Part shown: in pieces, positions 26,477-41,557 of the stretch
Layout: the number at the start of each line of letters is the position of its first letter
Numbering within the stretch: position 1 is the stretch's first letter
From: Paenibacillus sp. Soil766
Lineage (GTDB): Bacteria; Bacillota; Bacilli; Paenibacillales; NBRC-103111
NCBI RefSeq assembly: GCF_001428105.1
Contig: NZ_LMSJ01000030.1
Location: 1-64,000 of the forward strand
Length of the DNA: 64,000 nt
Direction: 5' to 3'
The notes under the pieces: model-generated
Database searches by the model: none
What the model was told of the DNA's origin: nothing
Seen by the model: only the letters and a program-made list of their open reading frames with translations
Translations under genes and position numbers: made by a program

Positions 26477-28984
26477 TTAACTAACTGTTTTCGGACGCTC
26501 CATGCGTGTAATGCCCGGCCAACGGAACGTTGCCCAATCCGGCTGCCTCTTCTCAATACGTGCTACAACAACAGTCATATCATCCTGAATCTCCCCGTGA
26601 TGGTGACGGAAAATACGCTCCAACAAGCAATCCGCGAAGTCCTGCGGCAAAGTGGTATCGATCTCCTGAATCATCCGCTTCATCCACATCTCCTTGTTCA
26701 CAGCATGGCCTGGGGCATCATAGATGCCATCTGTCATCATGACAAGGATATCCCCTGATTGCAAGGGTATGGAGACCAGATCGACATCAATTTCGCTCAA
26801 GATGCCCACCGGCAGATTGTTTGCCGAGATCGGGATAACCTCCGTACCACGCTTGATAAAGCTTGGCGTAGAGCCAATCTTCATAAATGTCGTGTGGGCA
26901 CTGTACATATCAATCAATGCCATATCCACCGTGGCGTACATCTCATCGGATGAACGCAGCATCAACACCGAGTTCAGCGACTTGATCGCGAGCTTCTCGT
27001 CCATCCCCGACTGCAGCAGCTGCTGCAGGATGCTAAGCGCTGTCTCGCTCTCCGCGCGCGCGCGCTCGCCATTGCCCATGCCGTCGCTCAGCGCAACGGC
27101 ATACTTGCCATTGCCCAGCTCCACCGTGGAGTAGCTGTCGCCCGAGAAGAGGTCGCCTCCCTTGGCAGCGCCGGCGACTCCGGTTTCCACCTCGTATTCC
27201 TTGGCGGAGCCGAATACGACCGTGCTGTAGCCCTCGCCGCGCGTGTGCATCTCCTCACGCATCACGGCGACGTTCTCGCCGATGATTTCGCTCAGAAGCG
27301 GCGCGATGATCTTCCGACATTCATCAAATCCTTTCGTATATTGATGGATAATTTCGATTTCGATGTTTCCTTCGTCTAAGGAAATCACATCGATGGTATG
27401 GATAGATAAGCCCAGCTCCTCCAGGGCATTACGAATTTGTTCTTCTTGAAGGAACAACTCCTGTCCTTCTCTCTTGATTTCCTTCGCTAAGTCTTCCATG
27501 ACCTGCGAAACACCTGACAGTTGGTCGGCTACAAGATGCCGGCTATCGATGATCTGTTTTTTCCAATGCCTGTCATTCTTATATAAGCTATATTGCCCTT
27601 TCATCACATCTAGCACTTGTTCCGAACGAATGCACACTTTCTTCCATTCAGGCGGAATCTGCTTCTTCGTCATACTCTCCTTCGTCTCAATTTGGCTCAT
27701 CATATCCGTCATATACGTGTAAGTTTGATAGAATTTCTGATCCCAGCACTGGCTCTTCTTCCAACACGACTCGCACGTCTTCTGAGCGACAGCATTCATG
27801 AAATGTCCGACATCTTCCTCCTTACGACTCACCTCATCTTCGGTCGTCAGCTGTTTGAAGCTGCGCGCCAGCTGGCGGAACACCTCAGAGAATTGCTCCA
27901 CGCGGCCAGCTGTCACATCCCGCACACGCTTCGCATAATCCTGCTGCGACTTCAGATTCTCTTGGGTACCAGGCACATACTTAGCAAGCATGAGAATCAC
28001 ACTGCGCGGTGTCAGGAGGAACAATGCAACGGCCGCAAGAGATTCCCAGGCTGAATTAATCATATCCACACTAGAACCCATATAGAAAGATAGAATAGAC
28101 GAGCCGATCAGCATCCCGAAGGCAACCATTAATCGATTCCCCTCTTTAAGTAGACCTGCGAGCATACCAGAGAAAGCAAGTAAACTCATCTGATAGATCG
28201 CATTGCTATTCGCAAGACTCAGGATCAGCCCTGTAACAACACCAACGGATGCTCCGAACGGCGCTCCTCCTACCAATGCAAACAGTAGTATCAAGTAACG
28301 AGATAGCACATGCTCTACCGTGACAGGACCCACAAGCCAACCCACAGTACCTGTCATGACCGAAGCCAGCAAAATAATTAAACAAATGATCTCCTCATGT
28401 TTCAGATGATAGTTTTTGCGGGTAAGCGTGAATACAGGGATCGCTTGAATGAAAATGAGCGTCAGCACCAAACTCAGCAACGCTTCAACGGTAAGCATCA
28501 TCAACGAGTACCACGTCAAGTTAGACACAACCAACTCCGCAAAGAGCTGCACGAGAAACGTTGAGCTGAACACGAGCAGCGGCGCTAACGAAACGTCTGA
28601 GCGTTCATATTTCTCAAGTGCCTTCTGGATCCCTAAGAAGATAATGATTTCTGTCACCAGATAACCGGTGTTCCCATTCACTGCGAGCAAGCTTCCGGCA
28701 AACGCTGCAATACCCACCCAATGTAAGATATCCTTTCTTGTAAAATAAATGACTGCGACAAACGCTAAAGCAAATGGTGACAACTGTTCCAGAATCATCG
28801 CCCGACCGAGCAAGAAGCCCATGACGATAAGCAGCAACGACCATTTCTTAGCAACAAAAGCTTGAACCCACCGATTCTCCACAGCTGCACCGTGAACGCC
28901 TACTTTTGCTTTCTGCCAAATTCCCGACCATCCGCTTCCCATCACCGCGCCTAAGCTTCGTCTTTGCATATTCTCGAACACCAT
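26477..28984 (-). CDS. spoIIE: Stage II sporulation protein E, PP2C phosphatase
   Basis: Dephosphorylates SpoIIAA and so activates sigma-F in the forespore; also acts at the polar septum with FtsZ. 835 residues. The N-terminal third holds many hydrophobic segments (about residues 50-330), then a central cytoplasmic region with a cysteine pair CESCWKKSQC, and a C-terminal PP2C domain with ALSDGMGNGERARAES and MMTDGIYDAPG plus DDMTVVVARI. A GC-rich block lies inside at about 26,990-27,300. Upstream is a promoter with Spo0A-type spacing. Confidence 0.97.
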   Translation of the reverse strand: MVFENMQRRSLGAVMGSGWSGIWQKAKVGVHGAAVENRWVQAFVAKKWSLLLIVMGFLLGRAMILEQLSPFALAFVAVIYFTRKDILHWVGIAAFAGSLLAVNGNTGYLVTEIIIFLGIQKALEKYERSDVSLAPLLVFSSTFLVQLFAELVVSNLTWYSLMMLTVEALLSLVLTLIFIQAIPVFTLTRKNYHLKHEEIICLIILLASVMTGTVGWLVGPVTVEHVLSRYLILLFALVGGAPFGASVGVVTGLILSLANSNAIYQMSLLAFSGMLAGLLKEGNRLMVAFGMLIGSSILSFYMGSSVDMINSAWESLAAVALFLLTPRSVILMLAKYVPGTQENLKSQQDYAKRVRDVTAGRVEQFSEVFRQLARSFKQLTTEDEVSRKEEDVGHFMNAVAQKTCESCWKKSQCWDQKFYQTYTYMTDMMSQIETKESMTKKQIPPEWKKVCIRSEQVLDVMKGQYSLYKNDRHWKKQIIDSRHLVADQLSGVSQVMEDLAKEIKREGQELFLQEEQIRNALEELGLSIHTIDVISLDEGNIEIEIIHQYTKGFDECRKIIAPLLSEIIGENVAVMREEMHTRGEGYSTVVFGSAKEYEVETGVAGAAKGGDLFSGDSYSTVELGNGKYAVALSDGMGNGERARAESETALSILQQLLQSGMDEKLAIKSLNSVLMLRSSDEMYATVDMALIDMYSAHTTFMKIGSTPSFIKRGTEVIPISANNLPVGILSEIDVDLVSIPLQSGDILVMMTDGIYDAPGHAVNKEMWMKRMIQEIDTTLPQDFADCLLERIFRHHHGEIQDDMTVVVARIEKRQPDWATFRWPGITRMERPKTVS

Positions 28985-29010
28985 CCATTTCTTCCCTTAT
29001 TTGTTACTCT

Positions 29011-29043
29011 AGTATAGATACAATCTAGCAGAAAGTTTGTCAG
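29011..29043 (-). promoter_or_regulatory. spoIIE promoter with 21-bp spacing
   Basis: On the minus strand CTGACA (29038-29043) and TATACT (29011-29016) are 21 bp apart, the unusual spacing known for Spo0A-activated sigma-A promoters of B. subtilis spoIIE. A near Spo0A box, TGACAAA (29036-29042, 6 of 7), overlaps the -35, and another, TGTCGGA (29070-29076), lies 27 bp further upstream. Confidence 0.65.
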
Positions 29044-29133
29044 AATGAGTTGATAGATTCAAAAAAGTTTCCGACATGTCCCGATGTCTTTGTCAACAGG
29101 TCCCAGCCCTTGCCTACTCTAGGTTCCTCATAG

Positions 29134-29147
29134 TGAAAACGTTTCCA
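29134..29147 (+). promoter_or_regulatory. Possible cre (CcpA) site
   Basis: TGAAAACGTTTCCA fits the catabolite-responsive element consensus TGWAANCGNTNWCA well, about 150 bp before spoIIE and outside the promoter proper. Function is unproven. The rest of the 28,985-29,268 gap holds only the spoIIE promoter; no tRNA genes are seen although B. subtilis has some here. Confidence 0.3.
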
Positions 29148-29268
29148 GAAGTCTGATTACCTCGAAACTTCGACCCGCATATGAGGGAGATACCCGTAAC
29201 TCCATGTCGATTGATTTCGGCTGTTTTTGCCGGACTTGTCGCACATCTGTCTTACACGGCAAAGAAAA

Positions 29269-29296
29269 AACCACATCCGCCGGAGCGAATGTGGTT
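29269..29296 (-). terminator. yabR terminator
   Basis: Twelve-base arms AACCACATTCGC / GCGGATGTGGTT (one G-U) with a 4-nt loop, followed by TTTTC on the minus strand. Confidence 0.85.
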
Positions 29297-29311
29297 CATC
29301 ATCTGCATCTA

Positions 29312-29911
29312 TTAGTCTCTTCTTCCGCCTCGGCCACCGCGTTTGGACTCGGTGTTCTTCTTCAAGGACGAAATCCGCTCTTCACTATCTTTGAGGAAAC
29401 GAGATACTTTATCTTCGAACGAAAACGGTCTAGCTCCGCCTTGCTGCTTGTTAAAGCCGCCGCGACCACCACCGCCGCCGCCACGATTGAAGCCACCGCC
29501 GCCACCCGGACGACCGCCACTACCACCTTGACCACCGCTTGGAGGACCACTACGGTCTCCGCCGCTGCTTGGACGACCACCTTGGTAACCGCCACTTGGA
29601 CGATCTCCACTAGGGCGACCTTGATAGCTGCTGCCACCTGTTCGTTCAGGACGAGCTGGTCTTTCCTCAACTGGCTTGTCAATCGTTTGCTTGATCGACA
29701 GTCCGATCTTGCCATCCTTGTCCACGTTAATTACTTTGACCGTTACCTTGTCTTCCAACTTCAAGTGGTCATTAACGTCCTTCACATAATTGTCCGCGAT
29801 CTCCGAAATGTGAACAAGACCGGTAACTCCTTCAGCAAGCTCGACGAATGCTCCAAAGTGAGTAATCCCCGTCACTCTTCCCTCTAACTTGGTGCCAACT
29901 TCAATTGCCAT
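29312..29911 (-). CDS. S1-domain RNA-binding protein with Gly/Arg-rich tail (YabR-like)
   Basis: 199 residues. Residues ~1-75 form a canonical S1 domain (VGTKLEGRVTGITHFGAFVEL, GLVHISEIADNYVKD, VKVINVDKDGKIGLSI). Residues ~85-165 are low complexity, dominated by G, R, P, S and Q. A final helical part, FSFEDKVSRFLKDSEERISSLKKN, ends in SKRGGRGGRRD. B. subtilis YabR, from the same position downstream of divIC, is about 128 residues, so the tail is expanded here. Likely binds RNA or ribosomes; the exact role is not known. Confidence 0.88.
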   Translation of the reverse strand: MAIEVGTKLEGRVTGITHFGAFVELAEGVTGLVHISEIADNYVKDVNDHLKLEDKVTVKVINVDKDGKIGLSIKQTIDKPVEERPARPERTGGSSYQGRPSGDRPSGGYQGGRPSSGGDRSGPPSGGQGGSGGRPGGGGGFNRGGGGGGRGGFNKQQGGARPFSFEDKVSRFLKDSEERISSLKKNTESKRGGRGGRRD

Positions 29912-30021
29912 AAAGTAAAATGTTCCTCCCTTAAAATGTTGAAAACACTGGCTACGCCGATTATAACCGATGCAGAAACCACGGTCAACACGGCATTCGC
30001 CACTTCTTCGTAACGTTTTTT

Positions 30022-30083
30022 ACCACATAAAAAAGTATAAGTTTTCGGTATCCGAAAATTGCTTTGTTATTGGCGATAAAACC
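30022..30083 (-). repeat. Structured hairpin element, copy A
   Basis: 62 nt read on the minus strand between divIC and yabR. Outer stem ATAACAAAG / CTTTTTTAT (one mismatch), inner stem TTTTCGG / CCGAAAA with loop ATA. Single-stranded parts ATCGCCA, ACTTATA and GTGGT are shared with copy B at 37,326. Could be an RNA domain in the yabR leader or divIC 3' end, or a small mobile repeat. Confidence 0.65.
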
Positions 30084-30133
30084 GACATCTAAACACGGTC
30101 GCTCACCTTCGAATTACCTCGATAAAGGTTTTC

Positions 30134-30457
30134 TCATTGCGGCCTCGAGGCGCTTAGTGGCGTCTCTCCCGTTTTACTGTAATGAAAGTCCCGGCGAATG
30201 ATCTGATTCAAATATTCGTCGTTATGCAGTCGTGCGATTTCCTTCGTCGTGAGGGCATTTATCTTCTGCGCTTCGGCGAGTTGTTGCTCCATATTCGCTA
30301 CGACGGCTTTCTTCTCGTGCAGCTTGGCGAACTGCCCCCAGATGTTAACAGCAGCCCAGCTCAGAAAACATAAGACGATGATCAAAAGGATACGCAGTCT
30401 TCGCTTCGAGCCTTCCCGACTGATGCGCTTGGTTGAAACGGTTGCTTGAGCATGCAT
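30134..30457 (-). CDS. divIC: Cell-division protein DivIC
   Basis: Bitopic divisome protein working with FtsL and DivIB. 107 residues: basic cytoplasmic N-terminus, one membrane helix about 22-41 (RILLIIVLCFLSWAAVNIWG), then a leucine-zipper-like coiled coil (KLHEKKAVVANMEQQLAEA) and the conserved LNQIIRRDFHYSKTGE end. Ribosome site AGGAGG. Order yabP-yabQ-divIC-yabR is conserved with B. subtilis. Confidence 0.92.
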   Translation of the reverse strand: MHAQATVSTKRISREGSKRRLRILLIIVLCFLSWAAVNIWGQFAKLHEKKAVVANMEQQLAEAQKINALTTKEIARLHNDEYLNQIIRRDFHYSKTGETPLSASRPQ

Positions 30458-30472
30458 GAATAGGAAATCCTC

Positions 30473-31048
30473 CTACTTCGAGAATATCCTGTGATAAAGC
30501 GCAATGATACGTCCCTTTAGTTTCTTCAACCAATCAGGGATCACCAAGTACTTATGCACAGGCTTAGTCATCCAGAGGAATAATCTCCACAAAGGATAGA
30601 GCAATTGTAGCACAATTCTGTAAAGGAATATAGCTACGGCTAGCAAAAAGCCTAAAATTATCACCGTTAGACGATATAACCCAATAATCGGTTTAATGAT
30701 TAAAATTTCGACAGTCCTCGTAAGGAAGCGGTAAATCGCCACAATAATTCGTATGAGAATGAGTATTAGACGAATGACAAGCGGACTAAGAAGACCGAAA
30801 TAGAAGCAAAGTCCGATCCCCATTCCAAGAAAAATAAAAATGCGAACTTGTCCTTCATTACTGTAAATGAGCATCTTGAACACTAGGATTATCGCCACAA
30901 TCCAATAGATACTATCTACAATTGGGATGGTCCATCGTGGCAATCGCAGCTTGCCCGAGAGTACATGAAAAATATCGAACAGAGCCCCTATGCAAATTCC
31001 ACTCAGGAACATCATGAAAATCGTCTGAAATTGAACGTGAAGCGTCAC
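30473..31048 (-). CDS. yabQ: Spore cortex biosynthesis protein YabQ
   Basis: 191 residues, highly hydrophobic: about five membrane segments (residues 5-25, 40-60, 67-95, 100-125, 120-150), ending in a basic tail. In B. subtilis YabQ lies in the membranes around the forespore and is needed for cortex formation. The start overlaps the yabP stop by four bases, so the two are coupled. Recognised by topology and position more than by motifs. Confidence 0.85.
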   Translation of the reverse strand: MTLHVQFQTIFMMFLSGICIGALFDIFHVLSGKLRLPRWTIPIVDSIYWIVAIILVFKMLIYSNEGQVRIFIFLGMGIGLCFYFGLLSPLVIRLILILIRIIVAIYRFLTRTVEILIIKPIIGLYRLTVIILGFLLAVAIFLYRIVLQLLYPLWRLFLWMTKPVHKYLVIPDWLKKLKGRIIALYHRIFSK

Positions 31049-31332
31049 TTAAATAACTTACCAAGAAACCCTTTGGATTTCTCCTGGGTGTTCCCGTCCA
31101 CATAGGCTAATTCATGAATAATACCTTCAATGGCGACTAATCCTTGCTCCAAGCTCAGGTTTTTGATGTGCAAATTTTGCCCCTTAATCATCAAGTAGCC
31201 CATTTCCGTTTCTAGGAGGAATTCTTCGCTATCAAAGCTTTCTACGTTCAAAACTCCCGATATTTCCAAGAGCTTGCGATTCAGCATCTTAATTTCTTGC
31301 CTTTTGTTACTGTTTTTTACAGGTTCAATCAT
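31045..31332 (-). CDS. yabP: Sporulation protein YabP
   Basis: 95 residues, YabP/YqfC family: LNRKLLEISGVLNVESFDSEEFLLETEMGYL... then MIKGQNLHIKNLSLEQGLVAIEG, a beta-rich fold. Strong ribosome site GAAGGAGGGG. Expressed under sigma-E in B. subtilis; the upstream 60 bp contain CATATCGT as a weak sigma-E-like -10 without a convincing -35. In B. subtilis yabP directly follows yabO(rqcP); here 6.1 kb of other genes separate them. Confidence 0.88.
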   Translation of the reverse strand: MIEPVKNSNKRQEIKMLNRKLLEISGVLNVESFDSEEFLLETEMGYLMIKGQNLHIKNLSLEQGLVAIEGIIHELAYVDGNTQEKSKGFLGKLFK

Positions 31333-31400
31333 GGCCTGTACCCCTCCTTCACCTATTCTTACGATATGGGGGGATGTCCTTTTTTAGAACTGCGAAAGCA

Positions 31401-31435
31401 AAACAGCCCAAGCTTCTATAGAGCTGGGACTGTTT
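31401..31435 (-). terminator. Terminator after the dioxygenase gene
   Basis: Fourteen-base imperfect arms AAACAGTCCCAGCT / AGCTTGGGCTGTTT followed by TTGCTTT on the minus strand; the plus strand also ends in TTTTT, so it may act in both directions. Confidence 0.65.
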
Positions 31436-31519
31436 TTACACGACTATGTTAAGTTGTAAAGCGACGTGTACCACTTATTCAATAATCTGGATGCCTCTTA
31501 AGCCTCGGCTCTCCTTCCT

Positions 31520-32191
31520 TCAGCTTACTTTGAACGCTGCCTTGGCCCAACTATATTCGGGGTCTTCCTGAGTCCCGTCTTTATAAGTTGAAATCAATGC
31601 CCATCTGTCTTGCCCGGACGTATTCGGGTAGGAGGCATGGTATAGTAGATCGTGAAAAATAATGGCATCCCCCCGCGAAGCGACTAAATCGACCACGTTC
31701 TGACCTTCGAGATCGCTGTCATCCAAGCGATTTTTAAAGCCAAGTCCGTCCGATGCATCGCCTCCATGAGTAGCGGATCCTAGCAAATGAGAACCGGGGA
31801 CGACCCTCAGACATCCATTTTCGGGGGTGGCATCATCCAAAGCGATCCACACCGACACCTTATGGCTTCCATTCCAATAGGGATAATCCTGGTGCCAAGG
31901 TGAACCGAAATCAGTGGACGAGTTTTTGAAAACGAGCTTGTCACTCAAGAAGATGACATCGTCTCCAATAATGTCCCTCAATGCCGCCACCAATACTGGA
32001 TGTGCAGCAGCTTTCTTGAATAAGGAGCTGGCCACCGCCATTCCCAAATAAACGCCTTCCTTGCCAACTCCGTTTTGTTCCAATATTGTACGAGCCGCTT
32101 CCTTGTACATGAGCACTTCTTCCCCCGAAAACAATTGAGGGAGCACGGTATACCCGATTGTTGCATATTCCTCTTTAGCTTGAACTGTCAT
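31520..32191 (-). CDS. Phytanoyl-CoA-dioxygenase (PhyH) family protein
   Basis: Fe(II)/2-oxoglutarate-dependent oxygenase fold, 223 residues from MTVQAKEEYATIGY, with GAGGAGG upstream. The facial triad is visible: H100 and D102 in PWHQDYPYW, H185 in DLLYHASYPN, and the 2-oxoglutarate arginine R196 in QDRWALIST. VSVWIALDDATPENGCLRVVPGSH is typical of the family. Substrate unknown. It is divergent from the AraC gene and shares its promoter region, so it is probably part of the same sugar-responsive cassette. Confidence 0.85.
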   Translation of the reverse strand: MTVQAKEEYATIGYTVLPQLFSGEEVLMYKEAARTILEQNGVGKEGVYLGMAVASSLFKKAAAHPVLVAALRDIIGDDVIFLSDKLVFKNSSTDFGSPWHQDYPYWNGSHKVSVWIALDDATPENGCLRVVPGSHLLGSATHGGDASDGLGFKNRLDDSDLEGQNVVDLVASRGDAIIFHDLLYHASYPNTSGQDRWALISTYKDGTQEDPEYSWAKAAFKVS

Positions 32192-32218
32192 TGCGCAAGT
32201 CCTCCTCTTTTTATATCT

Positions 32219-32246
32219 GAATAGGGTCAAGTGAATAGGGTCAAGT
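32219..32246. repeat. 14-bp perfect tandem repeat in the phyH-araC intergenic region
   Basis: GAATAGGGTCAAGT occurs twice head to tail, 28 bp before the dioxygenase start. On the minus strand each copy holds TTGACC, so it could affect a promoter as well as bind a regulator. Confidence 0.8.
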
Positions 32247-32315
32247 TGTGTCTTGACGACCGCATAAACAGCTTACCTTGATTCTGAAAAATTAAATATG
32301 CACCAAAAACGCTAC

Positions 32316-32375
32316 TTTGTGTACGGACTTGGCATTTACTAGTTTTTAATATTTAACATCAAATCCGTGCACAAA
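32316..32375. promoter_or_regulatory. Inverted 16-bp half-sites, candidate AraC-type operator
   Basis: TTTGTGTACGGACTTG at 32,316-32,331 and its inverse at 32,360-32,375 differ at only two positions. The arms are 44 bp apart centre to centre, about four helical turns, with an AT-rich middle. A plus-strand TTGGCA (329-334) and TTTAAC, 17 bp apart, lie between and over the arms and may be the araC promoter. Confidence 0.55.
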
Positions 32376-32583
32376 TTCGCTGTTCCCATGCATTGAGAGG
32401 AAGACACGAAATGTCGCATACTAGTACCAGTTAGATCAACTAAGGATGCCCAAGTGTACGCCGCATACGATCTACAAAATGTTCACAATCGTACACAGGG
32501 TCAATGGGTTTCGGCATCTGATTATGGATAATCGCATCAGGGCGTTTATACTATTTGAATATTCCAGAAAAGGAGTGTCTGCC

Positions 32584-33510
32584 TTGTCATTTGATCTGAT
32601 TCATTCCACAGTCGAATTTGAGCGGATCCGGTTATTGAGATCCGGTGATTTTATTGTGAAGCCAGGCTGGGTATACGGTCCGGTCTGCTTTCAGAACTAC
32701 CAGATTGTTTATTTCCCTACCGGAACGGAAACACGCTATATATGCTCAAATAAGTCGATCGTTCTGAATAAGCCTTGTGTCATCATTACGCCGCCAGGAT
32801 TAACGCATTCCTATGAATTCGACAAAGCGCAGCCGGTCCGGCATTTATTCATTACGTTCCATTGGGAAAGGGGGCCGGAAGAATCAGACTCCGATAAATT
32901 ATCGTCATCGGGCGACTCCGTCTGCTTACAATCGGTAGAGGAGACTTTTGTACCGCTGCTAATCAAACAAATTTTGCATTTGTCCAACAAAAAGGTTTAT
33001 CTGTGGGAAGAACGCTGCAAGCTGCTGCTTGCTTCAGCACTGGCGGAGTTGGAGGGCTTAAAAGGGATGCCTTCGTCAAAATCCACGCCGATCTCGGATA
33101 CGAAGCATTCGTTGCCCGTTCTGAAAGCATTGGATTATATCGATTCTCATTTGAAGGAGCCGATCACGATCGCCCACTTGGCCCAGGAGGTCGGTTGGAG
33201 CCATGAGTATTTCACCCGAAAATTTGTCCAGTATATGGGGATGTCGCCCCAGAAGGCGATTATGACACGTAGAATCGAAAGAGCCTGCCAGCTTTTGCTC
33301 CAGGAGAAATGGACCATTTCCGAGATCGCCTATACCGTCGGCTTTCAGAACGTGCATTACTTTTATCGGACGTTCATGAACATGAAAGGAATGACTGCCT
33401 CCCAATACAGGCACAAGTACTCGGCACCACATCTCAGGCACTTGTCGCCCGTCAATGGCTCTGAAGCCTCGTATCCGCTGAACCATTATTACTATTATTC
33501 TCCCCTGTAA
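32584..33510 (+). CDS. AraC-family transcriptional regulator
   Basis: About 308 residues from a TTG (LSFDLIHSTVEF) with AAAGGAG upstream; the open frame reaches 46 codons further but without a ribosome site. The N-terminal part (about 1-170) looks like a cupin sensor domain (FPTGTETRYICSN, ITPPGLTHSYEF). Two helix-turn-helix motifs occupy the last ~100 residues: ITIAHLAQEVGWSHEYFTRKF and WTISEIAYTVGFQNVHYFYRTF. Lies directly upstream of an oligosaccharide importer, so it probably controls that operon and the divergent dioxygenase. Confidence 0.92.
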   Translation: MSFDLIHSTVEFERIRLLRSGDFIVKPGWVYGPVCFQNYQIVYFPTGTETRYICSNKSIVLNKPCVIITPPGLTHSYEFDKAQPVRHLFITFHWERGPEESDSDKLSSSGDSVCLQSVEETFVPLLIKQILHLSNKKVYLWEERCKLLLASALAELEGLKGMPSSKSTPISDTKHSLPVLKALDYIDSHLKEPITIAHLAQEVGWSHEYFTRKFVQYMGMSPQKAIMTRRIERACQLLLQEKWTISEIAYTVGFQNVHYFYRTFMNMKGMTASQYRHKYSAPHLRHLSPVNGSEASYPLNHYYYYSPL

Positions 33511-33588
33511 ATTCACCGAATTTACACTTACCCCGTGGAGCCGCACGGTGTCTTGAACAAATTGATCCGGAAGGGAAGTAGAAATTGT

Positions 33589-34557
33589 ATGGCTGCTATC
33601 ACAGCGACGGATAAGGATAAACCGGAACTTCCTTCCGTGAGGAAGCCGGTTCGGCCTGGAAGATGGAGGCCGTTTCGCAAAAATTGGGATCTTTATTTGT
33701 TAGCCATCCCAGTGCTCATCTATTTCATCATTTTCGAGTATTTCCCTATGTACGGTCTACAAATCGCTTTTAAAAACTTTGTTGCCTCGAAAGGAATTTG
33801 GGGCAGCCCTTGGGTGGGCCTTGTCCATTTTGAACGTTTTTTTGACAGCTACTATTTTTGGAGATTAATCGAGAATACGCTTGGCATCGGCATATATGAG
33901 CTTGTTGTCGGGTTTCCGCTACCGATTTTGTTGGCATTAATGATCAACGAAGTAAAAAATGGAATATACAGACGATTTGTGCAAACGGTTACATACGCAC
34001 CGCACTTCTTATCTACGGTAGTTCTTGTTGGGCTGATATTCATCTTTTTATCCCCGCAAACGGGTATTGTCAACCAGCTCATTAAGCTGTTCGGCGGAGA
34101 TCCTGTCTCTTTCATGATGAGCGCGGGGTGGTTTAAAACGATTTATGTGCTTTCAGGTGCATGGCAGCACATGGGGTGGAGTTCGATTATTTATCTGGCC
34201 GCCTTGGCCGGTGTGGATCAGCAATTGCATGAAGCGGCGAGAGTTGACGGAGCCAGTCGGATACGGCGAATATGGCACATTAATCTCCCTGGCATTATGC
34301 CGACGATCGTCACTCTGCTCATCCTGAACGTCGGTCGCATCTTGAGCGTCGGGTTCGAGAAAGTATTTCTCATGCAAAATCAATTGAATATGGAAACATC
34401 GGACATCATTGCCACACATGTATATCGAATGGGTATTGCGGGTGCACAGTACAGCTATTCGACGGCTGTCGGCTTGTTCAATGCGGTGATCACTTTCATC
34501 ATGTTGATCGTAGTGAACTATTTGGCCCGCAAAGTAAATGAAACAAGTTTATGGTAA
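33589..34557 (+). CDS. ABC importer permease, LplB/YtePQ type
   Basis: Inner-membrane subunit of a carbohydrate importer. About 322 residues from MAAITATDKDKPEL with GGAAGGGAAG upstream. Six predicted membrane helices; RKNWDLYLLAIPVLIYFIIFEYFPMYGLQIAFKNF at the start is typical of LplB-like permeases. The EAA loop reads EAARVDGASRIRRIWHINLPGI, the contact for the ATPase. The protein overlaps the ribosome site of the next permease. No ATPase gene is present, as is common for importers that share one (MsmX-type). Confidence 0.93.
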   Translation: MAAITATDKDKPELPSVRKPVRPGRWRPFRKNWDLYLLAIPVLIYFIIFEYFPMYGLQIAFKNFVASKGIWGSPWVGLVHFERFFDSYYFWRLIENTLGIGIYELVVGFPLPILLALMINEVKNGIYRRFVQTVTYAPHFLSTVVLVGLIFIFLSPQTGIVNQLIKLFGGDPVSFMMSAGWFKTIYVLSGAWQHMGWSSIIYLAALAGVDQQLHEAARVDGASRIRRIWHINLPGIMPTIVTLLILNVGRILSVGFEKVFLMQNQLNMETSDIIATHVYRMGIAGAQYSYSTAVGLFNAVITFIMLIVVNYLARKVNETSLW

Positions 34558-34571
34558 AGGGGGGATCGCAA

Positions 34572-35453
34572 TTGGGGCAAACGAGAGGCGATCGAGTTTT
34601 TGAAGTCCTTATTTATATGGGGTTGGCGCTTACGACATTGATCGTTATCTACCCGCTCATCTTTGTGATTAGTGCTTCCTTAAGCGACCCATCACAAATT
34701 ATGAAGGGCAATGTGTGGCTATGGCCTGTCGATTTTAATTTCGGATCGTACGTGAAGGTATTCCAGAATAAGAACATCTTGAATGGATATGCCAATACGA
34801 TGGTATACACCCTTTTAGGGACCGCAATTAACCTGCTGCTTACAACGATGATCGCATACCCGTTATCTCGCAGGGATTTTGCCGGACGCAATCTGATTAC
34901 CGGATTTATGGTGTTTACTATGTTTTTCAGCGGCGGGATTATCCCAACCTACTTGTTGATCCGCGACCTTGGCATGCTCAATTCGATTTGGGCACTAGTT
35001 ATTCCTGGTGCGGTATCCGTATGGAATGTTGTCATTATGCGGACGTTTTTCCAAAGCAGCATTCCCCATGAAATCCAGGAATCAGCCTCGATTGATGGCT
35101 GCTCTAATATCCAGATTTTACTTCGGATCGTACTGCCGTTGTCCATGCCGATTATGGCGGTCATGACGTTATTCTATAGCGTCCATCATTGGAATGCCTT
35201 TTTCAATGCGCTCATTTATCTAAACGACCGGGACAAATTCCCTCTGCAGCTATTTTTGCGGGAAATTTTAATTCAGAACGAGATGAACGACATGATCCAG
35301 GTTCAGGACGAGTCGCTCGTGAAGCATATGATGCAGGTAGAAGGGTTGAAATACGCGGTTGTTGTTGTTGCCAATCTCCCCGTGCTGATGTTGTACCCTT
35401 TTTTACAAAAGTATTTTGTCAAAGGCGTTATGGTAGGGGCTTTGAAGGGGTAA
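34572..35453 (+). CDS. ABC importer permease, LplC type
   Basis: Partner permease, about 293 residues. Start taken as TTG (LGQTRGDRVFEV) because AAAGGGGGG lies seven bases upstream; an ATG seven codons earlier overlaps the stop of the first permease. Six hydrophobic segments; EAA-loop ESASIDGCSNIQILLRIVLPLSMP. Ends QKYFVKGVMVGALKG, the usual C-terminus of CUT1 LplC-like permeases. Confidence 0.92.
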   Translation: MGQTRGDRVFEVLIYMGLALTTLIVIYPLIFVISASLSDPSQIMKGNVWLWPVDFNFGSYVKVFQNKNILNGYANTMVYTLLGTAINLLLTTMIAYPLSRRDFAGRNLITGFMVFTMFFSGGIIPTYLLIRDLGMLNSIWALVIPGAVSVWNVVIMRTFFQSSIPHEIQESASIDGCSNIQILLRIVLPLSMPIMAVMTLFYSVHHWNAFFNALIYLNDRDKFPLQLFLREILIQNEMNDMIQVQDESLVKHMMQVEGLKYAVVVVANLPVLMLYPFLQKYFVKGVMVGALKG

Positions 35454-35498
35454 CTCTTGAAGTGATAGATGAACAAAAACTAAGGGGGGCTTACATCC

Positions 35499-37106
35499 AT
35501 GCGCAAAAAGTGGGGAGTATCGATGAGTGTCGCGATGTGTGCAATGATACTGGTCGCGGGCTGCAGTAAGGATACAGGTACAAGTACGGATAACATGGGG
35601 AAAGAGGAGAAAACGGCCAATATGAATGCAACCGGATTCCCGATCGTGAAGGAGCCCATCAAGCTGACAATGATGGCAGGTCAGGCTCCGACAACCAATC
35701 CGAACTGGAATACTGTGAGGATTTTTAACGAATATGAGAAGACAACGAACATGGACATCGAATGGCAGATGGTTCCGACTGCGGGACTAGTGGAGAAGTT
35801 CAATCTGGTTATGGCCAGCAGGGATTACCCCGACGCATTCCATACGGCCAAATTGACAGCATCAGATCTGATCAAACACGGTTCAGAAGGATCGTTTATT
35901 AAACTCAATGATTTGATCGACAAATATGCTCCGAACTTTAAGAAGCTGCTCGACCAGAACCCCGCATTGAAAAAAGGGATTACGATGCCGGATGGCAACA
36001 TTTACTCATTCCCAACCTACTACGACCCGAACTTCACCTATTTGCTCGTGAGCTCGCCGTTATGGCTTAACAAAACATGGCTGGATAAACTGGGCATGGC
36101 TCCTCCGGATACGACCGAAAAGTTTTATCAGTATTTAAAGGCCGTGAAAACAACGGATTTGAACGGTAACGGCAAAAATGACGAGGTTCCGTACGCAGGG
36201 ATTAAAGCTGATAATTTGATCAATCACTTGAAGGGCGCATGGGGCTTGACGAACCGCGGACGTACGCATGCTTATGTCGATGTGGAGCCGCAATCTGGGA
36301 AGCTTCGCTTTGTTCCGACCGATCCGAACTATAAAGAAATGATGGAGTTCATTCATAAGCTTTATAAAGAAGGCTTGATTAGTAAGGACATTTTCACTGT
36401 ACCGGCAAATGAGTTTTATGCGAAGGGCACAGAAGGCATTTATGGATCATCCATCGTCACGAGCATGGAAACGCTGATGAAGCAAACGAATTATATCGGA
36501 GCTCCTGCACTGAAGGGGCCTCACGGAGATCAAATATTCTCCTTTATCGGTTCCTCTCTAGCATCGCCTGGTGCGTTTGTTATTACAGATAAAAACAAAT
36601 ATCCGGCGGAAACGGTGCGATGGATCGATTATTTCTACAGCGAAGAAGGGAACAAGCAGTTTTTCATGGGCTGGAAGGGCGAGACGTATGAGGAATTACA
36701 AAACGGCGATTTGCAGTATACGAAAAACGTAACGAATAGCCCTGACGGAAAAACGTTGGAGCAGGTTATCTCGCAGTATTTAACATGGCCAGGCGGGTCT
36801 TATCCGGGCATCGTGAAACAAAAGACGTTCAAAGCCGCAGTGCCTTCAATGATAGAAGCGACGGAAACGGTAAAACCGTACCTTCCGAAGGAAGTGTGGC
36901 CAGCCTTCATTTACACACTGGAAGAGAACGCAAGGATGAATCAACTCCACGCGGACATTGATGTCTATGTGAAGGAGATGCAAGCGAAGTTCATTGTCGG
37001 CGGCGTGACGGACTGGGATAAGTACGTGGAACAGTTCAAAAAAATGGGTCTTGATGAGTATTTGAAAATATACAATGCCGCCTACGAGCGTTACAAGAAA
37101 AACTGA
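35499..37106 (+). CDS. Extracellular sugar-binding lipoprotein
   Basis: Substrate receptor of the importer. 535 residues, the size of LipO/YtcQ-like family 1 binding proteins. The signal peptide ends in the lipobox VAGC with the lipidated cysteine at residue 22, followed by a Ser/Thr/Gly linker. Binding-protein features: TTNPNWNTVRIFNEYEKTTN, DLNGNGKNDEVPY (a calcium-loop-like DxNxNGxxDE seen in this family). The ligand is unknown; LipO relatives bind oligosaccharides. Ribosome site AAGGGGGG. Confidence 0.93.
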   Translation: MRKKWGVSMSVAMCAMILVAGCSKDTGTSTDNMGKEEKTANMNATGFPIVKEPIKLTMMAGQAPTTNPNWNTVRIFNEYEKTTNMDIEWQMVPTAGLVEKFNLVMASRDYPDAFHTAKLTASDLIKHGSEGSFIKLNDLIDKYAPNFKKLLDQNPALKKGITMPDGNIYSFPTYYDPNFTYLLVSSPLWLNKTWLDKLGMAPPDTTEKFYQYLKAVKTTDLNGNGKNDEVPYAGIKADNLINHLKGAWGLTNRGRTHAYVDVEPQSGKLRFVPTDPNYKEMMEFIHKLYKEGLISKDIFTVPANEFYAKGTEGIYGSSIVTSMETLMKQTNYIGAPALKGPHGDQIFSFIGSSLASPGAFVITDKNKYPAETVRWIDYFYSEEGNKQFFMGWKGETYEELQNGDLQYTKNVTNSPDGKTLEQVISQYLTWPGGSYPGIVKQKTFKAAVPSMIEATETVKPYLPKEVWPAFIYTLEENARMNQLHADIDVYVKEMQAKFIVGGVTDWDKYVEQFKKMGLDEYLKIYNAAYERYKKN

Positions 37107-37199
37107 TCAATTCGTACCTGCGAGTCTGTCCGGCGCAAGGACACGGTAGTGGTTCAAATGGATCGAACGTGGCAGTAGAGTAGCGAATTGACATTGCAG

Positions 37200-37219
37200 T
37201 AGAGGGCGAAAGCCCTCTA
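37200..37219 (+). terminator. Terminator of the sugar-importer operon
   Basis: Perfect eight-base arms TAGAGGGC / GCCCTCTA with a GAAA tetraloop, then TTTGCTTTT on the plus strand. Confidence 0.85.
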
Positions 37220-37325
37220 TTTGCTTTTCCATGAGAAAAACTTCTATCGAAGTCCTTCGAGGATGAGCGACCGCGTTATTAAGTGGAGAGACTTTGGTCT
37301 CCAACCAAAGATCCCTATATATGGT

Positions 37326-37389
37326 GGTTTTTATCGCCAATAAGAATTTGTTCTTCCGAGCCTCGGAAACTTATAAATTCTTATGTGGT
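37326..37389 (+). repeat. Structured hairpin element, copy B
   Basis: 64 nt on the plus strand between the importer operon and convergent rqcP. Outer stem ATAAGAATTT / AAATTCTTAT (perfect), inner stem TTCCGA / TCGGAA. It matches copy A at 30,022 in the unpaired segments ATCGCCA, ACTTATA and GTGGT, while both stems differ in sequence yet pair. No ORF of note lies in 37,107-37,447 apart from this and the two terminators. Confidence 0.65.
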
Positions 37390-37394
37390 CAAAA

Positions 37395-37435
37395 AAATAG
37401 CCCGAGACTCCCTCTGCAGGAATCCCAGGCTATTT
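37395..37435 (-). terminator. rqcP terminator
   Basis: Arms AAATAGCC / GGCTATTT with an extended imperfect inner stem, followed by seven T on the minus strand (counting the end of the arm). Confidence 0.75.
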
Positions 37436-37447
37436 CATCGTTATGCG

Positions 37448-37711
37448 CTATTCGGATTGGAAGGCTTCTTCCTTCAGCAGCGTGTACATCTGCGCAGCGT
37501 CTTCCTTACGGGTCGACTCTGTCAAAAGCTCAACGCGAATCGTCACTTTCTTTTGACCGAACTGAATGGATAGCTCATCTCCAACTTTCACATGCGTACT
37601 CGCTTTCGCATCCCTACCGTTAATCCACACGCGCCCTTGGTCGGACACATCCTTTGCAACCGTACGGCGTTTGATCAGACGAGATACTTTGAGAAATTTA
37701 TCGATACGCAT
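37448..37711 (-). CDS. rqcP: Ribosome quality control factor RqcP (S4 domain, YabO)
   Basis: 87 residues, Hsp15-like S4 domain: MRIDKFLKVSRLIKRRTVAKDV, GRVWINGRDAKASTHVKVGDEL. In B. subtilis RqcP works with RqcH to add alanine tails to stalled chains on 50S subunits. It follows hup with a one-base overlap (TAATG). A C-terminal acidic extension KEDAAQMYTLLKEEAFQSE is seen. Confidence 0.92.
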   Translation of the reverse strand: MRIDKFLKVSRLIKRRTVAKDVSDQGRVWINGRDAKASTHVKVGDELSIQFGQKKVTIRVELLTESTRKEDAAQMYTLLKEEAFQSE

Positions 37712-37983
37712 TATTTTACAGCGTCTTTAAGCTTGTTGCCCGCTTTGAAAGCAGGAACATTGGATTCTGCGATTTCGATTGGGTTGCCCGTTTGCGGGTT
37801 GCGACCTGTACGGCCAGAACGCTTACGAGTTTCAAATGTACCGAAACCAATCAATTGTACTTTATCTCCGGATGAAAGAGCGTCTGTCACTTCACCAAGG
37901 AATCCGTTAAGGACAACTTCTACGTCTTTCTTAGTAAGTCCGCTTTTTTCAGCGATGTTGTTGATCAAGTCTGTTTTGTTCAT
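37711..37983 (-). CDS. hup: HU-type nucleoid protein
   Basis: Histone-like DNA-bending dimer. 90 residues: MNKTDLINNIAEKSGLTKKDV, GEVTDALSSGDKVQLIGFGTFETRKRSGRTGRNPQTGNPIEI with the conserved arm and its intercalating proline (RNPQTG). Ribosome site GGGAGG. In B. subtilis hbs maps elsewhere, so hup next to rqcP is a difference that I believe is common in Paenibacillus, though this was not checked. Confidence 0.96.
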   Translation of the reverse strand: MNKTDLINNIAEKSGLTKKDVEVVLNGFLGEVTDALSSGDKVQLIGFGTFETRKRSGRTGRNPQTGNPIEIAESNVPAFKAGNKLKDAVK

Positions 37984-38103
37984 GTGTTTTCTTTACCTCC
38001 CAAAATGTTTGAAGATCCCATCTTCTATGTACCAAGTGTGGTTACATTTCATAACTATACCTTGCAACAAGTCTAGTATTCTGCTTTTTTCGTCAAAATC
38101 CTT

Positions 38104-39630
38104 CTATCGCTGATCAAGTTTTACAACTTTTTTTGCTTCCTGCCAGTAAACTTCCATCTCTGATAACCCAGTTTGTTCAAAAGATAAGCCCTTTAAACGT
38201 AGCTGTTCCTCGATATACGAAAATCTTTGCATGAATTTACGATTTGTTTGGGCTAGCGCTTCCTCAGGGTCCACTTTGAGGAATCTAGCAACATTAACGA
38301 TAGAGAAGAGAACATCTCCCAGCTCGTCACGGCGCTCCTGAGCCCCGTCTTCTGCTCCTAACGCAATCGCTTCGCGCAGCTCGGAAAGCTCCTCTTCCAC
38401 TTTAGCCAACACATCATCCAGTTCTGTCCAGTCAAAACCTACCGCCGCCGCTTTCTTCTGCAGCTTCATCGCCTTCATCAAGCCCGGCAACTCACGTGGA
38501 ACCCCGTCTAGCACCGATTGTTTCGTCACATCAATGCCTTTCTTCCGCTTCTCTTCAACCTTGATTGCATTCCAATTAACCAACGCCTCATCGGCATCCT
38601 CTGCCGTCGACTCTCCAAATACATGCGGATGACGGCGGATCAGCTTCTCATTCAATGTCGCGATCACATCATACACGGAGAAGGTGCCGATTTCTTCTTC
38701 CATTTGGGCATGCAGCATGACTTGTAAAAGCAAATCGCCAAGCTCCTCGCACATGTGATCTGGATCATCTTCATCAATGGTTTCCAGCACTTCGTAGGCT
38801 TCCTCAATCAGATTCTTGCGCAGACTCTCATGTGTCTGTTCACGATCCCAAGGACAGCCCTCTGGGCTGCGCAGGGTTTGTACAATCTCATGGAGCTTAC
38901 CAAACGTTCGGTAATATGTTTCTTGCTGTTCGCTGCGAGGCACCCATACAAGTGACAAATTACCGTAGCCTTTGACATGATCCAACTCATGGAGCGGCAC
39001 TTCGATGATTTGTTCTTGACCTGCAACTCCTAAAGAGTGACCAACAACTACCCTGTACTCATCTGGATAGGCATCCATCAGGCTGATTTTTAGATCAGAG
39101 GCCGTATAGGTATCGTACACCTGCCCAATCACCGTATGAAGCTGTGGATTCAACGCATAACGGCTGATGCTCGTCGCATCCAGCAACTGGAAGCCATCGA
39201 TCGGATCGAAGCCAAAGCGTAAGAAGGCTTGGTCTAAGAAGCTCTCTCCACCTGTAATTTGGAGTTCGATGCCTTCAGAAGGGCAACGTTGTTTCAGAAG
39301 TTGCACCGTGTACTCCGCCACCATGGGATGACCTGGGACCGCGTACAACACTTCTGCCGCCTGGCTTTTCGCTGCATGGATTAATGCTTCCGCAATGGAC
39401 TCGTAGACGCCCTCGAACGACTCATTCGACATATAATTCGCGTCGAACGTTTCGTATGGGATGGCGTTCGCATCCAGCAGGTGAACCATCGGATGATCTT
39501 TCGTGCGCAGGAATAGCTTCGCTTGCGACTTTGCCACTAGTTGAAGCTTCTTCCATACGCCTAAGGTTAATTGATCTTCGTCTCCTGTCCCGAGTCCAAG
39601 GACAGTAATTCGCGGGTTGCTTGTTGACAT
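38104..39630 (-). CDS. yabN: YabN: tetrapyrrole-methylase-like domain fused to MazG pyrophosphohydrolase
   Basis: 508 residues. N-terminal ~220 residues resemble SAM-dependent tetrapyrrole methylases (ITVLGLGTGDEDQL, LYAVPGHPMVAEYTV). The C-terminal half is MazG: LRSPEGCPWDREQTHESLRKNLIEEAYEVLE with the metal-binding EExxE and EELGDLLLQVMLH, and a second copy near 420-470 (VEEELSELREAI, RRDELGDVLFSIVNVARFL). Hydrolyses nucleoside triphosphates to monophosphates. Same position as yabN of B. subtilis. Confidence 0.94.
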   Translation of the reverse strand: MSTSNPRITVLGLGTGDEDQLTLGVWKKLQLVAKSQAKLFLRTKDHPMVHLLDANAIPYETFDANYMSNESFEGVYESIAEALIHAAKSQAAEVLYAVPGHPMVAEYTVQLLKQRCPSEGIELQITGGESFLDQAFLRFGFDPIDGFQLLDATSISRYALNPQLHTVIGQVYDTYTASDLKISLMDAYPDEYRVVVGHSLGVAGQEQIIEVPLHELDHVKGYGNLSLVWVPRSEQQETYYRTFGKLHEIVQTLRSPEGCPWDREQTHESLRKNLIEEAYEVLETIDEDDPDHMCEELGDLLLQVMLHAQMEEEIGTFSVYDVIATLNEKLIRRHPHVFGESTAEDADEALVNWNAIKVEEKRKKGIDVTKQSVLDGVPRELPGLMKAMKLQKKAAAVGFDWTELDDVLAKVEEELSELREAIALGAEDGAQERRDELGDVLFSIVNVARFLKVDPEEALAQTNRKFMQRFSYIEEQLRLKGLSFEQTGLSEMEVYWQEAKKVVKLDQR

Positions 39631-39796
39631 AGAATGACACCTCCTGAGTAATGGTTATAGGGAGTTATGCGGCGAAATTCGCCAGTCGATTGGAACACAA
39701 TCCGTTGACTCCGGGCTACACTGTTGCACAGTATACATTATAAAGCGAGATATGCACCAGTTCGACTTACTAGTTTGAACAATAGCTCCCACGCCG

Positions 39797-41557
39797 CTAC
39801 TCATCACGATTCGGCGGCCTCAGCTTCGCCTGGAGCCTCGCCAGCTTCCGCTCCAGCTCCGGCATCAGCCGCAGCTCCTCGCGGCTGATGCTGCCGCTGC
39901 GCAGCAGCACAAGCGCGTAGACGGCCGCGCCGCCGGCTACGCCTATGAGAGCGATGGCGCTCGCGCTCCATCGCTCAGGCACGTGCCATGCCGCACTAGC
40001 GAGCATGGCCAGCCCTTGCAGCGCTGCGAGGCCGCCGCCCATCAGCCCCACGGCAAGCGTGGGACTGACGGCGTACGGCCGCAGCGCGAAGCGCACTCTG
40101 GTGCTGCGGCGCAGCTGCACCAGGTTCAGCCCCGCCGCAGCGGCGTAGGCGATCACCGCGCTGAGCGCGGCGCCGTCGATGCCCCAGCGGGGCATCAACA
40201 CGACGTTGCCGAGTGCTTTCAGCACGATGGCAACGAGCAGCGCAAGAACCGGCGTGCGGATCGCGCCGGTGCCCTGGAGAACGCTGGCACTGACAGCGTT
40301 CAGCGTACTAAACAAGGCCGTGAAGGCCAACACGGCCATCGTCCAGCTCGCCTCGGTGCTCGTATAGAGCATCAGATTGATCGGCATCGCTAAGAAGGCG
40401 AGGCCAAACGAGGCGCCGAGCCCGATCAACCACGCAAGCCTTATGGACATCTCTGCGCGAAAGCGGATCAGATCAACTTGCCCCCTTATTTTCGCTTCTG
40501 CGATAGCCGGTACCAAAACAGCCGACATTGAGGAGGCCACCATCACGACCAACTGAACTAGTGGAAGCCCACGGTTATAAAGGCCGAACTGACGCATAGC
40601 CTCCAGCTCGCTCCCAAATAAAGCATCCAGCAGTCGAGGCATGGTGAATGTATCCACAAGCGTGAGTAACGGCACAACAATAGCACCTAAGCAGACCGGG
40701 ATCGCATACACCGTGATCCGTTTCGCCCATTGCCAAGATGAACTTACTTGCTCGACTTCTAAGCCAGCGGCTACTACTTTCCTCACATCTTGGCCGCTTT
40801 CACCCTCTAGCTCAACATCCGCGGGTAAGTCTGCCTTCAGATGCTTTATACGCTCCGCACGCCGCTCTCGCCGCCAATACACGGCCATTACGGCTAGACC
40901 TGCTCCAGCGCCTGTCACAGAGCCAAATGTGGCCCCCGCAGCGATCCATGCCTCATCGTAGGCAAGTGCAACCAGATACAGCAATAACGCGACCATCGTA
41001 ATCACACGAATGAGCTGTTCAATGACTTGCGAGACCGCAGTAGGCACCATGTTTTGATACCCTTGGAAATATCCCCGCAGGACAGCAAGGACCGGAGATA
41101 AGAGCAGAGCAAAGGATACGCTGCGGATCGCCGTCACAGTCTGCGAAATACCAATCCAACCAGCAATCGTCTCCGCACCGAAATACAGCAGGAGAAATAA
41201 GAAAAACCCCGCACTCATCAATAGTGCAGATGAAACAACCACAATCCGTTTTGCACCAGGATGATCCCCTGCCATGACGCGTTCGGCTACAAACTTCGAC
41301 ACAGCGACTGGAAACCCAGCCGTAGCTGCAAATAAGATCAGAATATAGAGCGGATAAACCGCATTATAAATGCCAAAAGCTACATCTCCGGCTACGTTTT
41401 GCAAAGGAATCTTCTGCAGCGTCCCAAGTAACTTAGAGAGCACAGCCGCACCGCCAAGCAAGGCAGCGCCCTTTAACAGCTTGTTCCCCTGCTTACCGTT
41501 ACCATGCCCATGGAGCCCTTCTTTCTGGCAATCTTGCTCCTTGAAGGTAGCCTTCAT
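39797..41557 (-). CDS. SpoVB-like polysaccharide/lipid flippase (YabM position)
   Basis: 586 residues, MOP-superfamily exporter with about 14 membrane helices: LLKGAALLGGAAVLSKLLGTLQKIPLQNVAGD at the N-terminus is typical of SpoVB/YabM/YkvU. Probably flips a lipid-linked wall precursor during spore cortex synthesis or growth. The last ~170 residues are encoded by DNA much richer in GC than the rest (39,840-40,390). A poorly conserved loop with charged residues lies about 215-275. Assignment to SpoVB versus YabM rests on position only. Confidence 0.88.
   Translation of the reverse strand: MKATFKEQDCQKEGLHGHGNGKQGNKLLKGAALLGGAAVLSKLLGTLQKIPLQNVAGDVAFGIYNAVYPLYILILFAATAGFPVAVSKFVAERVMAGDHPGAKRIVVVSSALLMSAGFFLFLLLYFGAETIAGWIGISQTVTAIRSVSFALLLSPVLAVLRGYFQGYQNMVPTAVSQVIEQLIRVITMVALLLYLVALAYDEAWIAAGATFGSVTGAGAGLAVMAVYWRRERRAERIKHLKADLPADVELEGESGQDVRKVVAAGLEVEQVSSSWQWAKRITVYAIPVCLGAIVVPLLTLVDTFTMPRLLDALFGSELEAMRQFGLYNRGLPLVQLVVMVASSMSAVLVPAIAEAKIRGQVDLIRFRAEMSIRLAWLIGLGASFGLAFLAMPINLMLYTSTEASWTMAVLAFTALFSTLNAVSASVLQGTGAIRTPVLALLVAIVLKALGNVVLMPRWGIDGAALSAVIAYAAAAGLNLVQLRRSTRVRFALRPYAVSPTLAVGLMGGGLAALQGLAMLASAAWHVPERWSASAIALIGVAGGAAVYALVLLRSGSISREELRLMPELERKLARLQAKLRPPNRDE

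What the first reader, a model, noticed from the sequence alone, without database searches (positions are those of the whole stretch)
30022..37389. Two divergent copies of a hairpin element with compensatory stem changes, inverted 7.3 kb apart
A 62-nt element at 30,022-30,083 (minus) and a 64-nt element at 37,326-37,389 (plus) share unpaired segments (ATCGCCA, ACTTATA, GTGGT) but differ in both stems, each of which still pairs: outer ATAACAAAG/CTTTTTTAT versus ATAAGAATTT/AAATTCTTAT, inner TTTTCGG/CCGAAAA versus TTCCGA/TCGGAA. Such covariation points to selection on structure, either a conserved small RNA domain or a palindromic mobile repeat (REP/MITE-like). One copy lies at the right border of the inserted sugar-importer cassette. 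The inverted pair could also allow inversion of the segment between.
Basis: seen in the sequence. Interest (0 to 1): 0.7.

Follow-up and report, generated by a model that had tools for sequence, protein, structure and literature searches.

The report
BOX-like mobile repeat beside gene terminators
The two look-alike hairpins are two of several dozen copies of a small, gene-less mobile DNA element found across the Paenibacillus family; it inserts cleanly next to A-rich tracts at gene ends and folds so that its own two ends can meet, but what moves it is unknown.

Summary
The full copies are window 30023-30136 (-, 114 nt) and 37232-37388 (+, 157 nt). The own genome has 36 model matches; 85 of 104 family genomes in 15 of 22 genera have some. 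Architecture is A-(B)n-C: a 5' module, a variable centre with 0 to 6 hairpin boxes, a 3' hairpin. Stem covariation holds over 87 copies. A further pairing, over 150 elements, joins the 5' terminus to an internal 'splint' that runs into the 3' hairpin, so that both ends can abut.

The copies are insertions. Relatives lack the element at two sites, and head-to-tail tandems give the same ends. No target duplication and no terminal inverted repeat were seen. The consensus target of 114 sites is R|TNANAAAA; 69 of 114 have an A-run plus hairpin, as beside an intrinsic terminator. Y1 and Y2 transposases, integron integrase and reverse transcriptase do not track the copies. No inversion was seen.

Verdict: a new BOX-like family with an unusual insertion mode; mobiliser unknown. 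Target choice through the splint is inferred, not shown.

The parts
30023..30136 (-). Copy 1, complete element (short form, no box), TGAG...ATGTGG
   Evidence: CM R1 119.7 bits, E 1.8e-27; letters checked; absent in 17 of 20 fetched relatives
30071..30083 (-). Copy 1 splint GGTTTTATCGCCA: complementary to the element's own 5' end and continuing as the 5' arm of the 3' hairpin
   Evidence: P1 covariation over 150 elements; place
30023..30073 (-). Copy 1, 3' hairpin (module C), CCA...TGG with bulged G
   Evidence: place
30015..30022 (-). Host target flank of copy 1 (TAAAAAAC); closest relatives G005 and G014 read CAA|TAAGAAAACG or near it without the element
30134..30136 (-). First three bases of copy 1 (TGA) serve as stop codon of the DivIC-family gene 30134-30457; G005 and G014, without the element, have TAA there
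37232..37388 (+). Copy 2, complete element (one-box form)
   Evidence: R1 reports it in two pieces because of the box
37232..37275 (+). Copy 2 module A (5' end, hairpin CTTC-TATC-GAAG, GATGAGCGACCGCG)
37285..37324 (+). Copy 2 box (module B); 0, 1, 2 or 6 tandem boxes in elements looked at
37327..37339 (+). Copy 2 splint GTTTTTATCGCCA
37337..37388 (+). Copy 2, 3' hairpin (module C)
37389..37435 (+). Host target flank of copy 2: T-C-A-run, then the inverted repeat of a bidirectional terminator-like site at the end of the S4-domain gene 37448-37711 (-)
   Evidence: a similar A-run and repeat without the element in the 14 relatives printed

Best explanation
A family of non-autonomous, modular mobile elements of Paenibacillaceae, built A-(B)n-C like pneumococcal BOX. 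SHOWN by sequence: ends TGAGAAAA...ATGTGG; clean insertion without target duplication; consensus target R|TNANAAAA, often the tract beside a terminator-like hairpin; head-to-tail tandems at the same joint; a covarying complementarity in which the internal splint TTTTATCGCCA matches the 5' end (GAGAAAA) and, next to it, the 3' end (TGG), so both ends can meet. INFERRED: the element is excised or copied as a single strand (DNA more likely than RNA). The splint holds the ends for circularisation and then, because the host tract TNANAAAA resembles the element's own 5' end, pairs with the target and positions the joining, with no more than one base changed at the joint. The joining enzyme is supplied in trans and unidentified. 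Insertion at gene ends does little harm: the A-rich side of the terminator stays, and where the target is a TAA stop codon the element's own TGA replaces it.
For: Copy number and spread: 28 BLAST places, 36 CM matches in the own genome, 85 of 104 family genomes. Empty sites: 17 of 20 fetched relatives lack copy 1; a second site is readable as empty in 4 of 6 fetched relatives, the other 2 are too diverged there. Tandem joint GTGG|TGAGAAA in L147 and L089. Target over 114 distinct sites: -1 A .72, G .20, C 0; +1 T .85; +3 A .90; +5 to +7 A .77-.85; mean fold energy of the right flank -15.8 against -7.1 for base-shuffled flanks, left flank -6.6 against -6.6. Motif kept at 30 sites without a strong hairpin. 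P1 over 150 elements: 85.6% paired against 80.8 (highest of 500 shuffles 82.0), 63 double changes against 27 (highest 36), slid versions 50-66%. Near-identical copies at unrelated sites, e.g. 2 of 117 bases differ between two own-genome copies.
Against: No mobilising enzyme or autonomous relative found; the matches listed for five near-complete genomes show no long internal gene, though only some were opened. The 150 elements for P1 were picked with the motifs TGAGAAAA and TTTTATCGCCA (two mismatches allowed each), which fixes seven of the nine pairs beforehand; the free evidence is pairs 8 and 9 and the few departures, and part of it is the split of two subfamilies. P1 competes with other folds: enforced, the energy was unchanged in 1 of 5 test elements and 0.3 to 8 kcal/mol worse in 4. 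Splint-to-target pairing rests on A:T pairs in an A-rich tract, so an A-tract or terminator preference of an enzyme would look the same. At the second site relatives have C, not T, at +1, so that T may come from the element. Empty sites alone do not tell gain from loss. Strand and RNA/DNA state not shown.
Confidence: 0.62

Rival explanations
1. The same mobile element, but the target is chosen purely by a protein that prefers A-tracts or terminator hairpins; the conserved fold serves only recognition of the element's ends.
For: Hairpin of -8 kcal/mol or lower beside 84 of 114 sites (left flank 38 of 114); target contacts with the splint are A:T.
Against: Motif with fixed phase (T at +1, A at +3, R at -1) persists at 30 weak-hairpin sites.
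Confidence: 0.4
2. RNA-mediated copying (target-primed reverse transcription, SINE-like): the host T-tract primes cDNA synthesis on the element RNA's tail.
For: T-tract 3' end at the terminator, one-sided target, no duplication, RNA-like fold; reverse transcriptase matches in 26 of 30 genus genomes.
Against: G005 (25 CM copies) and G024 (7 copies) have no RVT_1 match; group II maturase domain absent from G005, G017, G021 and G029, all with copies. A lost enzyme is not excluded.
Confidence: 0.12
3. IS200/IS605- or IS91-derived miniature element moved by a Y1 or Y2 HUH transposase.
For: Hairpins near both ends, one-sided target, no duplication, A|T-like insertion point.
Against: Y1 domain in only 5 of 30 genus genomes, none in the own genome; Y2 in 11 of 30, none in the own genome.
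Confidence: 0.08
4. A functional regulatory RNA domain (attenuator, sRNA or 3' UTR element) kept for host benefit rather than a mobile repeat.
For: Conserved, covarying structure; position at gene ends.
Against: Empty orthologous sites, no shared neighbour gene in the 25 largest clusters, no Rfam family over its gathering score, near-identical copies at unrelated sites.
Confidence: 0.08

Closest known systems
BOX elements of Streptococcus pneumoniae (PMC3049150, passages read)
   Same: Composite boxA-(boxB)n-boxC layout with a variable number of middle boxes, interspersed intergenic copies, RNA-like fold, copies that supply the stop codon of a neighbour gene.
   Different: That paper states that BOX has terminal inverted repeats and makes target duplications; here neither is seen, and insertion is next to TNANAAAA/terminators. 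Sequence relation to BOX was not tested.
IS200/IS605-type miniature elements and REP/RAYT (recalled)
   Same: Hairpins near the ends, one-sided target, no target duplication, guide-like pairing.
   Different: No Y1 transposase tracks the copies; the end hairpin is followed, not preceded, by GTGG (REP layout recalled).
Integron attC cassettes (recalled)
   Same: Folded single-strand end with an arm complementary across the joint, a bulged base, head-to-tail tandem joints.
   Different: No integron integrase over the cut-off in 30 genus genomes; no gene; target beside terminators.
Group IIC introns (terminator targeting recalled)
   Same: Insertion beside intrinsic terminators.
   Different: Far too small, no group II intron match in Rfam, maturase does not track the copies.

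Membership tests
BOX-like composite repeat | fixed 5' and 3' modules with a variable number of middle boxes | tested here: met
   0, 1, 2 and 6 boxes seen
BOX-like composite repeat | terminal inverted repeats and target duplication (as stated for BOX in PMC3049150) | tested here: not met
   ends TGAGAAAA against CCACATAA; empty sites
MITE | ends match an autonomous transposon of the host | tested here: inconclusive
   no long element with these ends noticed among listed matches of five near-complete genomes; a scan of held loci was noisy and its output cut
IS200/IS605 miniature or REP/RAYT | Y1 transposase in genomes with copies | tested here: not met
   5 of 30 genomes have Y1, own has none
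IS91/Helitron-like | Y2 transposase in genomes with copies | tested here: not met
   11 of 30 genomes, own none
Integron cassette | integron integrase | tested here: not met
   0 of 30 over the cut-off
Group II intron derivative | maturase/RT in genomes with copies, intron RNA domains | tested here: not met
   no Rfam intron match
Known Rfam RNA | match over gathering score | tested here: not met
   none in window 28000-40000 or in six element loci (five weak matches below gathering)

The most novel reading that the evidence does not exclude
A gene-less mobile element that carries its own guide: one internal 11-nt splint aligns its two ends and, by base-pairing with TNANAAAA, also selects the insertion point beside terminators or stop codons, using an enzyme supplied by the host or another element.
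Probability: 0.3. Interest if true: 0.85.

Novelty: new variant of a known kind. Interest (0 to 1): 0.62.

Why it matters
Small interspersed repeats are common in bacteria, but their mobilisers and target rules are often unknown. This family has defined ends, empty sites, a sharp target motif and a covarying fold that can join both ends, and is present in 85 of 104 family genomes tested, so its mechanism is directly testable. A self-guided, terminator-seeking insertion that spares terminator and stop codon would be a useful model and possibly a gene-insertion tool.

Tried and rejected
Peptide-coding reading: parts of some copies read as a short open frame (seen by eye), but subfamilies differ by indels; not pursued. 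Associated gene: clustering of open frames within 2.5 kb of copies; the 25 largest clusters printed were transporters, sensors, regulators and the like by eye, with no recombinase noticed. Plasmids: two records of Paenibacillus cellulosilyticus, 12 places; phages: no match; viral contigs: four 18-mer hits, none an element, and none for a 5'-module pattern. Pairing GCGA/TCGC of the centre: 95% paired but no covariation, so no support. Literature: in ten full-text searches none of the listed papers was, by title, about such a Paenibacillus repeat; only the top rows were listed and the library lacks most subscription papers. Rows dropped before counts: one search starts from 177 profile hits and drops copies without both ends, without 60 nt of flank, with N, or with flanks like an earlier site, leaving 114; one search aligns 87 of the 97 short references; one search keeps 150 of 202 hits.
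Full report
OBSERVATION. They are the 3' halves of longer elements. Reading upstream of the copies shows a conserved 5' module starting TGAGAAAA and a variable centre. Full copies in the window are 30023-30136 (-) and 37232-37388 (+) (letters checked).

ANATOMY. Module A: TGAGAAAA, a small hairpin around TATC, then GATGAGCGACC. Centre: a dozen nucleotides, or boxes of about 37-40 nt with a hairpin core (one in copy 2, two in L141 and L224, six in L225), or another hairpin insert (L026, L029, L093). Module C: a long hairpin CCA-ATAAG...CTTAT-G-TGG with an inner stem. On 87 distinct short copies, 23 pairs form in 90.7% of cells (83.7 shuffled; 31-54 when slid), with 162 double-change cells (71.7 shuffled); the count of pair types shows no excess (23 against 22.6), and the small 5' hairpin is the weakest helix, 81.8%. 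Much of the covariation is the split of two subfamilies, but some pairs vary further.

Over 150 elements it is 85.6% paired (80.8 shuffled, highest of 500 shuffles 82.0) with 63 double changes (27, highest 36); slid versions give 50-66%. At the eighth pair C-G occurs 82 times, A-T 48, G-T 4, T-A 4, T-G once, and 11 of 150 do not pair. One G-A mismatch is conserved (139 of 150 unpaired there). Caveat: the elements were picked by the motifs TGAGAAAA and TTTTATCGCCA with two mismatches each, so pairs 1-7 were nearly fixed beforehand; pairs 8 and 9 are the free test. So TTTTATCGCCA can act as a splint on which the 3' end TGG and the 5' end GAGAAAA lie side by side. Enforcing P1 left the energy unchanged in 1 of 5 test elements and cost 0.3 to 8 kcal/mol in the other 4, so it is not the only fold.

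MOBILITY. At copy 1, 17 of 20 fetched relatives lack the element; three (G011, G012, G016) have one there (20 of the 29 other genus genomes were fetched). In the closest empty relatives the change is CAA|TAAGAAAACG to CAA[TGAG...GTGG]TAAAAAACG: nothing is duplicated, and the TAA stop of the DivIC-family gene is replaced by the element's TGA. At a second site (first copy in L018) four relatives are empty, reading CTGCA|CAAAGAAACC or close variants; two more fetched relatives are too diverged to use. Two head-to-tail tandems (L147, L089) show the joint GTGG|TGAGAAA. In the own genome two copies differ at 2 of 117 bases with unrelated flanks. G016 carries a boxed copy at the site where the own genome has an unboxed one, so boxes are gained or lost, or the site was hit twice.

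TARGET. From 177 profile hits, 114 sites with both ends, full flanks and dissimilar surroundings remain. Position -1 is A .72, G .20, T .08, C 0; +1 T .85; +2 A .70; +3 A .90; +5 to +7 A .77-.85. The right flank folds at -15.8 kcal/mol on average (base-shuffled -7.1), the left at -6.6 (-6.6); 84 of 114 right flanks and 38 of 114 left flanks reach -8; 69 of 114 have an A-run plus such a hairpin on the right. Thirty sites without a strong hairpin keep the motif. Neighbour genes by a simple open-frame caller: 46 sites between tandem genes opposite to the element, 28 convergent, 19 tandem co-oriented, 11 divergent, 10 at locus edges, none inside a frame. In 18 of 114 sites an open frame of at least 60 codons ends on the element's first stop triplet, against 13 of 228 in the two other frames; at 100 codons 15 of 114 against 6 of 228.

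SPREAD. The covariance model R1 matches 85 of 104 family genomes in 15 of 22 genera, with 36 matches in the own genome; counts near 35 look capped, and the search used stricter filters. Five near-complete genomes (1-2 contigs) list 19, 21, 30, 13 and 7 matches. In the genus, 6 of 30 genomes have 0-2 matches (G001, G002, G007, G015, G019, G025) and 4 more have 3-5 (G009, G023, G028, G029). Of 80 listed loci, 69 are named Paenibacillus; the 11 others gave no element with the model.

ENZYME. Y1 transposase: none in own, 5 of 30. Y2: none in own, 11 of 30. Integron integrase: 0 of 30 over cut-off, with weaker matches in all 30 and in all 14 control genomes, as for tyrosine recombinases in general. 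Group II maturase: 24 of 30, absent from G005, G017, G021 and G029, which hold 25, 13, 28 and 3 copies. RVT_1: 26 of 30; the four without a match are G002, G005, G019 and G024, of which G005 holds 25 copies and G024 seven. An enzyme lost after past activity, or one outside these families (for example another tyrosine recombinase), is not excluded.

MECHANISM. Shown: ends, clean insertion, target motif, complementary fold. Inferred: the splint joins the ends, and the host tract, which resembles the element's own 5' end, takes the same place on the splint. That would be target choice by internal pairing. Against it, the target contacts are A:T, so a protein that likes A-tracts would give the same logo.

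COMPARISON. PMC3049150 (passages read) describes BOX as boxA-(boxB)n-boxC, with terminal inverted repeats and target duplications, and with 36 copies encoding a stop codon. Layout and stop-codon use match; inverted repeats and duplication do not. PMC10969869 (passages read) reviews prokaryotic MITEs; the search of its text found no 'Paenibacillus'. Sequence kinship to BOX was not tested. No Rfam family reaches its gathering score. Among the papers listed by ten searches none was, by title, a description of this repeat.

VERDICT. A new BOX-like family with an unusual insertion mode. Confidence in the plain reading with the inferred steps 0.62; the self-guided reading is kept at 0.3.

Noticed in passing
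window 31390-37391: A ~6-kb block (PhyH-family gene, AraC-like regulator by eye, sugar ABC permeases, solute-binding protein, element copy 2) is missing between the YabP gene and the S4-domain gene in the 14 relatives printed; two of them (L205, L212) hold another insert there. Copy 2 is the block's right border. Whether the element took part in its arrival is open.
   Followed up: partly
G006 and G017 (single-contig genomes starting at dnaA): Element orientation opposes the assumed replication direction in 17 of 19 (G006) and 10 of 13 (G017) matches, taking the terminus at half the contig; may only reflect terminator orientation.
   Followed up: partly
L225 (G027), L224 (G026): Elements with six and two tandem boxes; box number could be a natural typing marker.
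   Followed up: no
L041/L068, L069, L070, L071, L072 (G018): A subfamily has 5' end GAGATAAACC with splint GGTTTATTC (read for L041 and L069), a compensated change. Copies share flanks, so a larger repeat carries them. The flank of L041/L068 reads TAAGATAAACC, others TAAGAAAAACC or near it.
   Followed up: partly
L126, L164: Truncated copies whose 3' hairpin runs directly into a terminator-like hairpin (by eye).
   Followed up: no
window copy 1 site in G016 (L203): Same site holds a one-box element in G016 and a no-box element in the own genome; G011's copy there (L204) is decayed.
   Followed up: no
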